From the NCBI RefSeq assembly GCF_001586275.1, contig NZ_CP014545.1, forward strand, positions 1,700,501 to 1,764,500: a DNA stretch of 64,000 nucleotides, in the 5' to 3' direction. Shown in pieces: positions 52,137 through 59,399 of this stretch (within the stretch, counting starts at the first letter, position 1; each line of letters begins with the position of its first letter). The notes under the pieces are model-generated. The model was not told the DNA's origin and made no database searches. It worked only from the letters and a program-made list of their open reading frames with translations. The translations under genes and the position numbers were made by a program. The stretch comes from Sphingorhabdus sp. M41 (lineage in GTDB: Bacteria > Pseudomonadota > Alphaproteobacteria > Sphingomonadales > Sphingomonadaceae).

Positions 52137-52502
52137 CTAGAGGCTATAAGGTATCCGGATGCCCGGCATATTGGCCGGGAAATTCTTTGTGTTCCGCGTA
52201 ATCAAGATAGCACCATTGATCTGCGCAGTAGCAAGTATCATCGCATCAAGGAGCTTCATCCCTGTCCGATAGCGGATATCCGCCGCTGCATCACCTATTC
52301 GTGCATCCAGTTCGACGATTTCGAACGGAGACAGCAGATCCTGCACGTTGCGCCGGGTCTCCAATGGTTCTCCTGCCATCACTTCCGTCCAGACAATGCG
52401 GCTAATTCTATGCTTTGCATAGCGCTGCAACTCGGCCGCCGCACCGGGCCGGTCCTGAAGCCAGTCAATGATGATATTGGTGTCGAAGAAGGGTGTGGAC
52501 AT
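52137..52502 (-). CDS. vapC: VapC-type PIN-domain toxin
   Basis: A 121-residue PIN-domain RNase. The acidic metal ligands lie in FFDTNIIIDWL, IVWTEVMAG and LLDAMILATAQ, followed by ILITRNTKNF, typical of VapC. Such toxins cut specific RNAs (often tRNA or rRNA) until bound by antitoxin. It follows the antitoxin gene by 6 bases. Confidence 0.9.
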   Translation of the reverse strand: MSTPFFDTNIIIDWLQDRPGAAAELQRYAKHRISRIVWTEVMAGEPLETRRNVQDLLSPFEIVELDARIGDAAADIRYRTGMKLLDAMILATAQINGAILITRNTKNFPANMPGIRIPYSL

Positions 52503-52508
52503 ATATTG

Positions 52509-52742
52509 TTATGTGGATTCGCGGTCGGCGCGGATTGCACGCTGATATGCGACGCTGTCACCAATATCATCGCGATCCTTCCAATATCCGCGACCTTTGG
52601 AAATCCAGTCCTTGCTTGCTTCGGCGCGAAAACCGGCTACTGCCTCCCGCAGCAACTGCGCCCGCGATTTTCCCTGCTCTGCTGCTTGCGCGTCGAGCCA
52701 TTTCACATCATCTTCGGGAAGGTCTGCCAGGATACGGGTCAT
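52509..52742 (-). CDS. vapB: VapB-type ribbon-helix-helix antitoxin
   Basis: A 77-residue protein. The N-terminus TRILADLPEDDVKWLDAQAAEQGKS RAQLLREAV has the strand-helix-helix pattern of CopG/RHH DNA-binding proteins; the acidic C-terminal tail (about 45-77, rich in Trp/Asp/Arg) would wrap the toxin. It precedes vapC and should repress their shared promoter at the twin TGATATCA boxes directly upstream. Confidence 0.85.
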   Translation of the reverse strand: MTRILADLPEDDVKWLDAQAAEQGKSRAQLLREAVAGFRAEASKDWISKGRGYWKDRDDIGDSVAYQRAIRADREST

Positions 52743-55007: not shown

Positions 55008-56042
55008 TCAGTTCGACGGCTTCCCGCCCTTGCGCCACTTGGTCCACAAATGCCGTGCCAGCATCATCGGCGGCATCCGCAGCCAGTGCGAGCGGACGTA
55101 GAAAGCGAAGCGGGTGAACTTGCGCGTTTCGCGGCCAAATCCGTCGCGCGCGAGCAGTCGGCGGATGTAGAAAGAATCTGCCGAAGCAGACCGGTCAGCC
55201 AGACCTTGATCAACCGGCGTGCCATAGAGCGAGGCAGCAAGGCGCAATGCCCTTGCCAGTTCGTCGCCCAGTCCGTGGACTTTTGCACGGGCACCCAGTT
55301 CGTTCCAGAATTGCTGATCCGCTCCACAAAATTCGCGCAGCAGATGATTGATGTCCCACAGGTTCCGCAAGCCGCCGGCCAGATCGCCGTCTGCGAACAG
55401 ATGGGCGATGGAATGCAGCACCATGTCGGCAGGAGCCATGACATACAGACCGTCGTCCAACCGAACCGCGCTTTCAAGAATTGCAGCCGCATCTGGCGTC
55501 GGACCTGCGGTCAGCGGCAAAATTGTATGGTGAACATCGATCATCCGGTCACGCTCGCGGTGAATCAGCGGCGGCAGTTCGTGCATATGATCGCGGTAAT
55601 ATTGGTCGTCATAGGGGTCCGGCTTGACCCATTCCCAACCCGCATCGAGCAAAGAGGCTTCAACGACAGGCAAGTCTTTCCGGTCGACCATGATATCAAG
55701 ATCGCCGATGCTGCGGCCTACGCCGGCTGCCCTATTCCCCGCGACATAGGCAGTGCCTTTCATCAGGACGATCTTGCCGGGATAGTCGGCGAGCGCCCGT
55801 CGGGCACAGTCGGCTTCCCACAAGGCCTGTTGCCGCGCCAGATCATGCGCCTCGATGGCATCCTGCAGAACCGCGCGAACGCTATCGGGCACGGTCACTG
55901 GTTTGAGCCGGTGAGCGAGCGAACCAATCAGCGATTCCGCCCGTGCTATGCTGATCAAGTCGGTCCACTGCCTGCCGTTCAGCGCCTCGACGCTGGCCGG
56001 TTCCCGCAGAGCATTCACCAACGGGCGCGCGTCCCGCATCAT
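55008..56042 (-). CDS. Nucleotidyltransferase-family protein of the HPr-rel-A cluster
   Basis: A 344-residue protein of the 'uncharacterised nucleotidyltransferase' group (PF14907-like). The metal-binding G-D-x-D motif is in GRSIGDLDIMVDRKDLP, preceded by VLMKGTAYVAG and followed by IDVHHTILPL. It could transfer a nucleotide to a protein or small molecule; the substrate is unknown. ATG at 56042 overlaps the kinase stop as ATGA and is preferred over the GTG at 56057. Members are often found beside HPr-kinase-like and PqqD-like genes, as here. Confidence 0.82.
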   Translation of the reverse strand: MMRDARPLVNALREPASVEALNGRQWTDLISIARAESLIGSLAHRLKPVTVPDSVRAVLQDAIEAHDLARQQALWEADCARRALADYPGKIVLMKGTAYVAGNRAAGVGRSIGDLDIMVDRKDLPVVEASLLDAGWEWVKPDPYDDQYYRDHMHELPPLIHRERDRMIDVHHTILPLTAGPTPDAAAILESAVRLDDGLYVMAPADMVLHSIAHLFADGDLAGGLRNLWDINHLLREFCGADQQFWNELGARAKVHGLGDELARALRLAASLYGTPVDQGLADRSASADSFYIRRLLARDGFGRETRKFTRFAFYVRSHWLRMPPMMLARHLWTKWRKGGKPSN

Positions 56043-56908
56043 GGCAACCGGCTCCACAGGCCGTCGATCAATTCTTCTGCCTGCTCGGCCGATTGATAAT
56101 CCATTGCCTTGGTCGGAACCTGATCGACGAACCGGGTCAGGGCGCGAAAGCCGGCCTCGCCAAGCGCGACATAATTGGTCGAAGCCTGGGTCAGTCGAAC
56201 GAATATTTCCGATTTCCCCATGTCGCGCAATTCGGGTGCATGACCAAAGCGGGGAAAGAGCAGCAGCGCCGGTTTGGCAGGTTCGTCCATCTTGGCGATT
56301 GCATTCGCCGGCGGAACAAGATGGCGGATATCGCCCTTCGGCGTGGCCTTCATCTCCGGGCCGAAACGGTTCGCCGGCGCCACTTTCTGCATCGCCTCAA
56401 TCGACTGATTTTTCAAGCTGATCAGACGTGGAAACGCCGTGATCTCGCCAGAATCGAGGCCCAACAAGGCAAATTCATCGCCCATGAAACGCCAGCCTCT
56501 CTCGGCCAGCATCGCGGATAATGTCGACTTTCCCGAGCCCGACAGACCGGTCATGACCAGCGCCTTGCCGTCCTTTTCAACGCTGCTGGCATGGAGCAGC
56601 AAATGCCGCCGCCAGCCCAGCGCCATTTGCAGGTTCATGCCCATTTCTGCGGCGAGTAATCCCTGGCTGAGCGGCAGGGGCGCGGCATCGGGGAGCCAGA
56701 AGTCACCGCCAATATGCACCGACGGACGAATATAGCGGCGCCAGGGTTTCTCGGGCTCAAGAAGGACGGTAAAATCCACGCTATCACCAGTCGGTACCGG
56801 ATAGTCCTGATAAAGGCCTTTTAATTGTTCCAGCGGCTGTCGCCAGGCCGAGGCAATCCGGAACGCGGCGGGTCCAATTTTGAGCGAGATCCGGTGCATG
56901 TCCTGCAT
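56039..56908 (-). CDS. HPr-kinase-related protein (HprK-related kinase A type)
   Basis: A 289-residue protein. The C-terminal two-thirds resemble HPr kinase: LLLHASSVEKDGKALVMTG leads to Walker A GLSGSGKST (121-129) and then FMGDEFALLGL with the expected catalytic Asp (D144). It lacks the full HPr kinase N-terminal domain. HprK-like enzymes in lasso-peptide clusters phosphorylate peptide C-termini, so a protein or peptide kinase role is plausible. It is coupled to the PqqD-like gene by TGATG and to the nucleotidyltransferase by ATGA. Confidence 0.85.
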   Translation of the reverse strand: MQDMHRISLKIGPAAFRIASAWRQPLEQLKGLYQDYPVPTGDSVDFTVLLEPEKPWRRYIRPSVHIGGDFWLPDAAPLPLSQGLLAAEMGMNLQMALGWRRHLLLHASSVEKDGKALVMTGLSGSGKSTLSAMLAERGWRFMGDEFALLGLDSGEITAFPRLISLKNQSIEAMQKVAPANRFGPEMKATPKGDIRHLVPPANAIAKMDEPAKPALLLFPRFGHAPELRDMGKSEIFVRLTQASTNYVALGEAGFRALTRFVDQVPTKAMDYQSAEQAEELIDGLWSRLP

Positions 56909-57192
56909 CAGCCAGACACTCGCGAAACCAGGCCCAGTGCTAAAAGTTCTTCCATGCGGGCGAGAACAATATTTTCTGAATCAGCACCCGCTTCGACGTC
57001 GAAGGATGCAGTCAATCGTGATGCAATTTCAGCGGCGCTAAGCGGAGCATCTTCCATCACCTCGATTATGGCCGGCACAGGATCGGCCAGCATATGGGTG
57101 ATCCCGGACGGTCGATGAAATATCAGCGTCATGCTGTCCAGGTCATGCCAGATGAGATCATCTTTCGGCGCAGCCCGATATTTCTGGATCAT
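56908..57192 (-). CDS. PqqD-family peptide chaperone of the HPr-rel-A system
   Basis: A 94-residue protein with a PqqD/RRE-like fold: beta strands YRAAPKDDLIWHDLDSMTLIFHRP-type N-terminus, PAIIEVMEDAPLSAAEIASRL, then a helix-turn-helix-like end (ENIVLARMEELLALGLV). PqqD-like domains bind leader peptides of ribosomally made, modified peptides. In this operon it is the likely substrate-recognition part for the kinase. The stop overlaps the kinase start as TGATG. Confidence 0.82.
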   Translation of the reverse strand: MIQKYRAAPKDDLIWHDLDSMTLIFHRPSGITHMLADPVPAIIEVMEDAPLSAAEIASRLTASFDVEAGADSENIVLARMEELLALGLVSRVSG

Positions 57193-57264
57193 GATGGATT
57201 ACCTGCGAATCTGCTGCGACATAGCGATCTGATAGCAGGCAAATGTTAAAATTGGACGGATATG

Positions 57265-57696
57265 TCAGCGAGGCATTTGCAGCGAGGCATAGCAAGTGAA
57301 TCCGCTCTGTCCGGATTGCAGTCTGCGAATATAATTCACATAAGCCTGCGACTGGTCATAGGAGGTGCCCGGCAACGTGCGACCGTTCATCGCCTGCAGC
57401 ACTTCTTCACCGGTAAAATTGCGTCCTGCTGCCGGAAAGGCTCCCGGAGTGTCGGCAGTAACCACCCGGCCGTCCGCTGCGATATAGCCGCCTGCGGCAT
57501 GGTTGCCGGGAACCGGGATTTCGCAATTGAGAACCGAACCGGCAGTCTGGGCCAATGCCGGCTTGATACTGACCACGGCGGAAGCGGTTATCGCACCCAT
57601 CATCAAGGCGCGCCGGCGGATTACAATTCCGTTATTCTGGTCAGTTTCCGCTGACGTTTCAGATGGAAGGCCGTCTTTCATCGAATTTCTATCCAT
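57265..57696 (-). CDS. Exported Cys-containing protein, possible substrate of the HPr-rel-A cluster
   Basis: A 143-residue protein that I cannot assign to a family. A long polar N-region (1-26) leads to a Tat-like IRRRALMMG and a hydrophobic stretch ending KPALAQ (about residue 50). The mature domain has exactly two Cys (C58, C135), a GGYIAADGRVV segment, and ends in YASLQMPR. It lies 72 bases upstream of the PqqD-like gene on the same strand, so it may be co-transcribed and modified by that cluster. GAGAA precedes ATG 57696. Confidence 0.7.
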   Translation of the reverse strand: MDRNSMKDGLPSETSAETDQNNGIVIRRRALMMGAITASAVVSIKPALAQTAGSVLNCEIPVPGNHAAGGYIAADGRVVTADTPGAFPAAGRNFTGEEVLQAMNGRTLPGTSYDQSQAYVNYIRRLQSGQSGFTCYASLQMPR

Positions 57697-59264: not shown

Positions 59265-59293
59265 CTGTAACATATCTGTAACATATCTGTAAT
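59265..59293 (+). promoter_or_regulatory. Pho box array upstream of pstS
   Basis: CTGTAAC at 59265-59271, CTGTAAC at 59276-59282 and CTGTAAT at 59287-59293, each separated by ATAT, giving an exact 11-base period. This is the PhoB-binding direct repeat (CTGTnAn-N4-CTGTnAn), here with three half-sites, that is two overlapping Pho boxes. A further ATGTAAC lies at 59252-59258, off the period. It lies about 107 bases before pstS. Confidence 0.85.
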
Positions 59294-59399
59294 GATCAGG
59301 ACATTGCGCCTCCCTAGAAGCCACCCCAACAAGTCGAGCTTTCTGGTTCATGGCGGCGTTTGGCCATCGGTGGAAAAGCGACGAATTAGGGATTTTTGC

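What the first reader, a model, noticed from the sequence alone, without database searches (positions are those of the whole stretch)
55008..57696. Coupled PqqD-like / HPr-kinase-like / nucleotidyltransferase unit with a candidate exported substrate
Seen: four same-strand genes. The last three are translationally coupled (TGATG, ATGA). The products are a 94-aa PqqD/RRE-like protein, a 289-aa HPr-kinase-like protein with intact Walker A and Asp, and a 344-aa nucleotidyltransferase with a G-D-x-D motif. Known: PqqD-like domains bind leader peptides, HprK-like enzymes phosphorylate peptides in lasso-peptide clusters, and an 'HPr-rel-A' neighbourhood is named in protein family models but has no assigned function, as far as I know. 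Inference: the 143-aa Cys-containing exported protein just upstream is the substrate, recognised by its long polar N-region, then phosphorylated and/or nucleotidylated before or during export. No protease or cyclase is present, so it is not a lasso cluster.
Basis: partly seen in the sequence, partly recalled or inferred. Interest (0 to 1): 0.78.

Follow-up and report, generated by a model that had tools for sequence, protein, structure and literature searches.

The report
Kinase cassette with its exported target
A small gene set, known by name only, encodes a peptide-binding protein, a kinase and a nucleotidyltransferase, and it usually sits beside a gene for an exported protein that it probably tags before export.

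Summary
The four genes are real and intact. Two products pass NCBI's models of the unassigned "HPr-rel-A system" (PqqD_rel_X, HprK_rel_A); a third is a PF14907 nucleotidyltransferase. The PqqD-like protein models as a leader-binding RRE domain, nearest to lasso-peptide B1 proteins. Of 147 Sphingomonadales genomes, 81 carry the kinase, and all 81 have an RR-signal partner with [ST]CxxS near its C-terminus (75 within 3 kb upstream of the kinase). In the window's family (64 genomes) partner and kinase occur together in 23 and are both absent in 41. Outside the order an RR-signal protein usually still precedes the PqqD-like gene, but its mature part mostly differs. The shared element is the signal, with a [P/S/G]-hydrophobic-[T/S]-hydrophobic core (75 of 93 signals, 13 of 462 other RR ORFs; motif defined after seeing the signals). 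This favours the signal core, not the variable polar N-region, as the recognition element. Proposed: RRE holds the signal, the kinase phosphorylates a hydroxyl (most likely the CxxS serine), the nucleotidyltransferase extends it, export follows. Binding and chemistry are inferred. New variant of RRE-guided tailoring.

The parts
57265..57696 (-). Exported partner protein, 143 aa, the probable substrate
   Evidence: ORF and translation; no Pfam or NCBIfam family; found in 23 of 23 same-family genomes that have the kinase (one weakly) and in 0 of 41 that lack it
57547..57618 (-). Core of the signal, residues 27-50 (RRRALMMGAITASAVVSIKPALAQ), the probable recognition element
   Evidence: R28, R29, S43 and P46-A-L-A-Q50 invariant in 28 aligned sequences, the window's included; signal profile and control
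57283..57297 (-). C-terminal TCYAS motif, residues 134-138; Ser138 is the candidate acceptor
   Evidence: Ser three residues after the last Cys in 69 of 75 upstream candidates chosen by signal only in the order; T134, C135 and S138 invariant in the 28 close relatives
56908..57192 (-). PqqD-like RRE protein, 94 aa (TIGR04353)
   Evidence: 56.4 bits against cut-off 35; AlphaFold2 mean pLDDT 93.8; nearest solved structures TbiB1 and TfuB1 with leader peptides
56039..56908 (-). HprK-related kinase A, 289 aa (TIGR04352)
   Evidence: 244.6 bits against cut-off 200; G124, G126, K127, S128, T129, D144, E145, T189, K191, G192 invariant in 22 aligned sequences
55008..56042 (-). PF14907 nucleotidyltransferase, 344 aa
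   Evidence: 4.9e-46; K100, G101, G114, R115, D119, D121, D174, H176 invariant in 18 aligned sequences, numbered on the 349-aa frame; natural fusion to the kinase in L141

Best explanation
The cassette is an RRE-guided tailoring unit for one dedicated exported protein. The partner is made with a twin-arginine signal whose conserved core is bound in the cytoplasm by the PqqD-like RRE protein. That protein presents it to the HprK-related kinase, which uses ATP to phosphorylate a hydroxyl, most likely the serine of the C-terminal [ST]CxxS motif in this class of partner. The PF14907 nucleotidyltransferase then decorates the phosphate, as reported for a lasso peptide that receives hexoses. The tagged protein is exported and its signal removed. 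Shown: gene content, conservation, co-occurrence, predicted RRE fold, intact catalytic residues, kinase-nucleotidyltransferase fusion. Inferred: binding of the signal, the acceptor residue, the order of steps, the chemistry, and Tat as the route.
For: 81 of 147 Sphingomonadales genomes carry the kinase: 79 over the cut-off plus G093 (197.7 bits) and G006 (187.8) just below. All 81 have a PqqD_rel_X match at E 0.001 and 79 a PF14907 match. An RR or RK signal ORF with [ST]CxxS in its last 60 residues lies within 3 kb upstream in 75 of 81; the same test on upstream antisense, kinase antisense, downstream sense and downstream antisense gave 0 of 81 each. The other six: beside PqqD on another contig (G045); beside a displaced PqqD (G053); unlinked to the cassette (G035, G080, G097, G119). 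Selected by signal alone, 75 of 81 have a candidate and 69 of these 75 have Ser at +3 from the last Cys. In 50 named loci outside Sphingomonadaceae, 47 have an RR or RK signal ORF in the same place. Signal-core motif 75 of 93 against 13 of 462. RRE fold. Fusion. A lasso-like cluster of the same order, L151, holds PF14907, PqqD and Asn synthase, with a weak kinase match in the same stretch (G039 C6).
Against: The CxxS tail is not universal: outside the order 30 of 53 genomes have it, some of the 23 misses being short contigs, and only 3 of 50 named loci, which is the level of that call's own controls there (1, 2 and 3 of 50; in its sphingomonad set 2 of 30 downstream). Most of those partners have a different mature domain, so the acceptor there is unknown. 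The window's family has Ser, not Pro, at the first place of the signal core, and with Pro strictly the motif is in 57 of 93. The core motif was defined after seeing the profile. The signal-only count of 47 of 50 has no chance control. The generic Tat model found nothing in this genome, so Tat rather than Sec is not settled. Co-occurrence shows a functional link, not a modification. The partner's model is weak (mean pLDDT 64.5, residues 4-53 under 50) and matched nothing.
Confidence: 0.6

Rival explanations
1. The exported protein works with the cassette but is not modified by it; the kinase and nucleotidyltransferase act on a small molecule or glycan, and the RRE-like protein is a scaffold.
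For: Only co-occurrence and position link them; partner mature domains differ widely; Pfam calls PF14907 an uncharacterised nucleotidyltransferase.
Against: An RRE-fold protein has no obvious use without a peptide; the partner's signal core is far commoner than in other RR ORFs; PF14907 and PqqD also occur beside a lasso-type Asn synthase, and in lasso systems such enzymes tailor a peptide (review PMC8498205, passages).
Confidence: 0.17
2. It is a RiPP system proper: the partner is a precursor whose C-terminal piece is cut off and released as a small phosphorylated peptide.
For: RRE plus tailoring enzymes; short conserved C-terminal piece after a variable, often low-complexity middle in many order partners; an 82-aa mini-partner in L113 is little more than signal plus SCLDSFNGL.
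Against: No protease or cyclase in the cassette; no Transglut_core3 in the genome; many partners have a conserved mature domain of about 100 or more residues.
Confidence: 0.13
3. The kinase is a spare HPr kinase acting on HPr or another PTS protein, and the neighbours are incidental.
For: Weak match to HPr kinase P-loop.
Against: A short protein matching Pfam Hpr_kinase_C over its cut-off (82.6 bits against 33.3) lies elsewhere in this genome, between a ChvG-like sensor kinase and RapZ; in the order the cassette kinase comes with a PqqD match in 81 of 81 genomes and a PF14907 match in 79 of 81.
Confidence: 0.03

Closest known systems
HPr-rel-A system of NCBIfam (TIGR04352, TIGR04353)
   Same: Kinase and PqqD-like protein pass the curated cut-offs; NCBI's annotation of a Sphingomonas parapaucimobilis plasmid shows hypothetical protein, HPr-rel-A system PqqD family peptide chaperone, HprK-related kinase A, nucleotidyltransferase family protein in this order.
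   Different: The names cover the enzymes only; the upstream protein is annotated as hypothetical. No held paper carries these names; the models' own comments could not be read here.
Lasso-peptide tailoring sets with HprK-like kinase and nucleotidyltransferase (paeninodin, pseudomycoidin)
   Same: RRE (B1), HprK-like kinase and nucleotidyltransferase in one set; [quoted passage not shown] the original papers were not held).
   Different: No Asn-synthase cyclase and no B2 protease here; the partner is a 143-aa protein with a signal, not a short precursor. Whether the pseudomycoidin nucleotidyltransferase is itself PF14907 was not tested.
Tat proofreading chaperones (DmsD, TorD; recalled, from no call)
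   Same: A small cytoplasmic protein thought to hold a twin-arginine signal while the cargo is completed.
   Different: Different fold; here an RRE is the proposed holder, and binding is not shown.

Membership tests
HPr-rel-A system (NCBIfam) | HprK_rel_A over curated cut-off | tested here: met
   244.6 bits, cut-off 200
HPr-rel-A system (NCBIfam) | PqqD_rel_X over curated cut-off, adjacent | tested here: met
   56.4 bits, cut-off 35; its stop overlaps the kinase start
RRE proteins | Winged-helix PqqD-like fold | tested here: met
RRE proteins | Binds a leader or signal peptide | not testable with these tools
   No complex prediction on hand
Lasso-peptide cluster | Transglutaminase-like B2 protease (PF13471) | tested here: not met
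   0 matches in the whole genome at E 0.001
Lasso-peptide cluster | Asparagine-synthase-like cyclase beside the cassette | tested here: not met
   11 neighbouring proteins between 48589 and 63144 scanned with Pfam, none has Asn_synthase; the one Gln-amidotransferase neighbour is GlmS, 808.5 bits against 418
HPr kinase/phosphorylase (HprK) | Pfam Hpr_kinase_C or TIGR00679 over cut-off | tested here: not met
   15.6 bits against 33.3; 17.1 against 240
Tat substrates | Generic twin-arginine signal model | tested here: inconclusive
   TIGR01409 no match in the genome; TatC present, 2.8e-73; RRxLLK-like consensus in relatives

The most novel reading that the evidence does not exclude
Export signals double as leader peptides: a stand-alone RRE binds the core of a twin-arginine signal, holds the cargo back from export, and hands it to a kinase and a nucleotidyltransferase that put a phospho-linked group on it. 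Across Proteobacteria one signal type would serve several unrelated cargo domains.
Probability: 0.4. Interest if true: 0.88.

Novelty: new variant of a known kind. Interest (0 to 1): 0.74.

Why it matters
It gives a named but unassigned system a defined partner family, so its function becomes directly testable with one protein and three deletions. If the signal is the leader, it would join two fields that are kept apart: RRE-guided peptide modification and quality control before protein export. Ten diverse partners reach no Pfam or NCBIfam cut-off, the cassette occurs in many Proteobacteria, and the work would show what PF14907 enzymes do.

Tried and rejected
Lasso cluster: rejected, no B2 protease in the genome and no cyclase among 11 neighbours. 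Canonical HPr kinase: rejected.

Phosphate-regulon control of the partner: a PhoR relative lies divergently upstream in 47 of 81 order loci (only 40 of the 81 were held with more than 2.6 kb upstream) and in 0 of 53 outside. A Pho-box-like scan found no match between partner and phoR; the best ones, at 59265-59304, precede pstS, and the scan as a whole barely exceeded chance (40 against 30.7 expected, 8 of 100 shuffles as high). Not pursued.

Recognition by the polar N-region: rejected, variable. Structure of the partner: weak model, no match. Solved relatives of the nucleotidyltransferase: none credible. A universal CxxS tail: rejected by the named non-sphingomonad loci. Plasmids: 4 records carry a relative of the nucleotidyltransferase, 1 of the partner; the Vibrio alfacsensis one has an RR-signal protein before the kinase but no PqqD gene listed.

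Rows dropped before counts. The 53 genomes outside the order are those over the cut-off, less G583, whose kinase is split at contig ends; G232, G330, G462, G508 and G664, below the cut-off, were fetched (L190-L194) but not counted. For the signal profile I left out G122, G119, G550, G062, L259, L275, L198, L199, L200, L203 and L215, and at least L221 and L222 among the 93 kept look like wrong picks. In one search the picks for G122, G119 and G062 are wrong stretches but are in the 75. In one search the other RR ORFs were 690 in all, of which 228 were excluded as resembling the partners. In one search, 9 of 50 loci were left out (L259, L275, L235, L239, L241, L244, L262, L267, L264) and 3 had no candidate; of the 38 left, 20 have [ST][PH]G with W within two residues and 29 have [ST][PH][GA].

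Papers: searches returned none. One search listed 3 and one search listed 16; I read passages of PMC8498205 and PMC7533575 and only the listings of the rest. Only CC-licensed PMC text is held.

Full report
What is there. Four minus-strand genes at 55008-57696 are real and intact. The 94-aa, 289-aa and 344-aa products are PqqD_rel_X, HprK_rel_A (both over curated cut-offs) and a PF14907 nucleotidyltransferase. The 143-aa product matches no family. It has 3174 relatives at E 0.001 or better, the best 120 listed; those with a name are hypothetical proteins, several of Parasphingorhabdus and Sphingorhabdus. Downstream lie glmU and glmS; divergent lie a PhoR-like sensor kinase gene (295.7 bits against a cut-off of 334) and pst-type genes. 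The same order is annotated in Sphingomonas parapaucimobilis, where the fourth protein is called hypothetical.

Spread. The kinase is over the cut-off in 79 of 147 genomes of the order, in 8 of 289 of the class sample (two of them from the window's family) and in 61 of 398 of the phylum sample, 13 of these from the order.

Co-occurrence. In the order, two genomes at 197.7 and 187.8 bits are counted with the 79. All 81 have a PqqD_rel_X match and 79 a PF14907 match; the two without, G023 and G113, have the kinase at a contig end. A profile of the 143-aa family finds 26 of 147 genomes, all with the kinase; two of these matches (G010, G017) are weak, hold a stop and are probably chance. Within the window's family of 64 genomes the table is 23 both, 0 and 0 single, 41 neither (Fisher p 6.8e-18, not corrected for kinship); one of the 23 (G053) is weak, 8e-7.

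Distant partners. Outside the family the 143-aa profile mostly fails, yet a protein of the same plan lies upstream: RR signal, a Cys soon after it, a variable and often low-complexity middle, and a tail [ST]C-x-x-S. A fixed test finds it in 75 of 81 order genomes and 30 of 53 genomes outside. Controls on the same loci: 0 of 81 for upstream antisense, kinase antisense, downstream sense and downstream antisense in the order; 1, 0, 0 and 2 of 53 outside. The six order misses all have a partner with the tail elsewhere: G045 on the contig with its PqqD, G053 beside a displaced PqqD, and G035, G080, G097 and G119 away from the cassette. In G053 and in all four of the latter the partner lies next to a PhoR relative, the cassette's usual neighbour, so the locus was split and every part kept. 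Chosen by signal alone, 75 of 81 order genomes have a candidate and 69 of those 75 have Ser at +3 from the last Cys; outside, 44 of 53 and 28 of 44.

A second set. A scan of genome contigs gave 80 named loci. Of 30 sphingomonad loci 27 have the linked partner with the tail; the other three are two Sphingopyxis and an unnamed Sphingomonadaceae, whose genomes I did not search for an unlinked partner. Of 50 others (Massilia, Nitrosomonas, Thioalkalivibrio, Rhodoferax, Accumulibacter, Methylococcaceae and more) only 3 have the tail, within that call's controls there of 1, 2 and 3 of 50; in the sphingomonad set the controls were 0, 2 and 0 of 30. But 47 of 50 have an RR or RK signal ORF at the same place, and the 3 without hold under 900 bases upstream; two of the 47 picks are doubtful (L259, L275). 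I ran no chance control for this signal-only count. By rough pattern the 47 fall into 30 with an [ST]PG stretch, 3 with [ST]CxxS, 2 with a third tail and 12 others; the largest group has a different mature domain around C-x-G-x-[ST]-P-G-Y-W. In L235, L239 and L125 the tail reads A-[FY]-x-S with Ala for Cys, which favours Ser over Cys as the point that matters; three cases only.

The signal. In 93 non-redundant signals the RR is all but invariant, one core position is P (70%), S or G (11% each), the fourth residue after it is T or S (92%), and the next is L in 67%. The motif [PSG]-hydrophobic x3-[TS]-hydrophobic, written after seeing this profile, is present in 75 of 93, against 13 of 462 other RR ORFs of the same loci. 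With Pro strictly it is 57 of 93 against 6 of 462. The window's own signal has Ser at that place (S39-A-V-V-S43-I). Since mature domains differ and the signal does not, the signal is the likeliest handle for the PqqD-like protein. This is inference.

Mechanism and precedent. Review PMC8498205 (passages) reports HprK homologues that phosphorylate the C-terminal Ser of lasso precursors, in Proteobacteria with several phosphates, and a nucleotidyltransferase that adds one or two hexoses to the phosphorylated peptide; the original papers were not held. PMC7533575 (passages) notes HPr kinase, PqqD and nucleotidyltransferase with ruminal lasso clusters. So the cassette looks like the tailoring half of a lasso cluster put to work on an exported protein. 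It is not a lasso cluster.

Verdict. Partner as substrate: about 0.8 likely. Signal as recognition element: about 0.5. CxxS serine as acceptor in this class: about 0.5. The system has a name; its partner family and a mechanism were not found in print in the library searched.

Noticed in passing
window 59265-59304: Three overlapping Pho-box-like repeats (CTGTAACATAT) upstream of pstS.
   Followed up: partly
L153 4637-7585: A different cassette: PqqD, HprK-like kinase, an 85-aa small protein with a KRKNLKK signal, and PF14907 nucleotidyltransferase.
   Followed up: partly
L151 6405-10356 and L154 9212-15351: Lasso-like clusters with Asn synthase and PF14907 nucleotidyltransferase (PqqD too in L151) in Sphingomonadales genomes that also carry the HPr-rel-A cassette.
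   Followed up: partly
L276 2897-3589 and relatives: An exported family with an RR signal and C-x-G-x-[ST]-P-G-Y-W upstream of HPr-rel-A cassettes in many Beta- and Gammaproteobacteria; the L276 member matches no Pfam or NCBIfam family.
   Followed up: partly
L069 6731-8320; L163; L175: Two tandem partner genes before one cassette.
   Followed up: no
L113: An 82-aa mini-partner, little more than the signal and SCLDSFNGL.
   Followed up: no
window 52137-52742: PIN-domain gene with a ribbon-helix-helix gene upstream, a likely toxin-antitoxin pair.
   Followed up: partly
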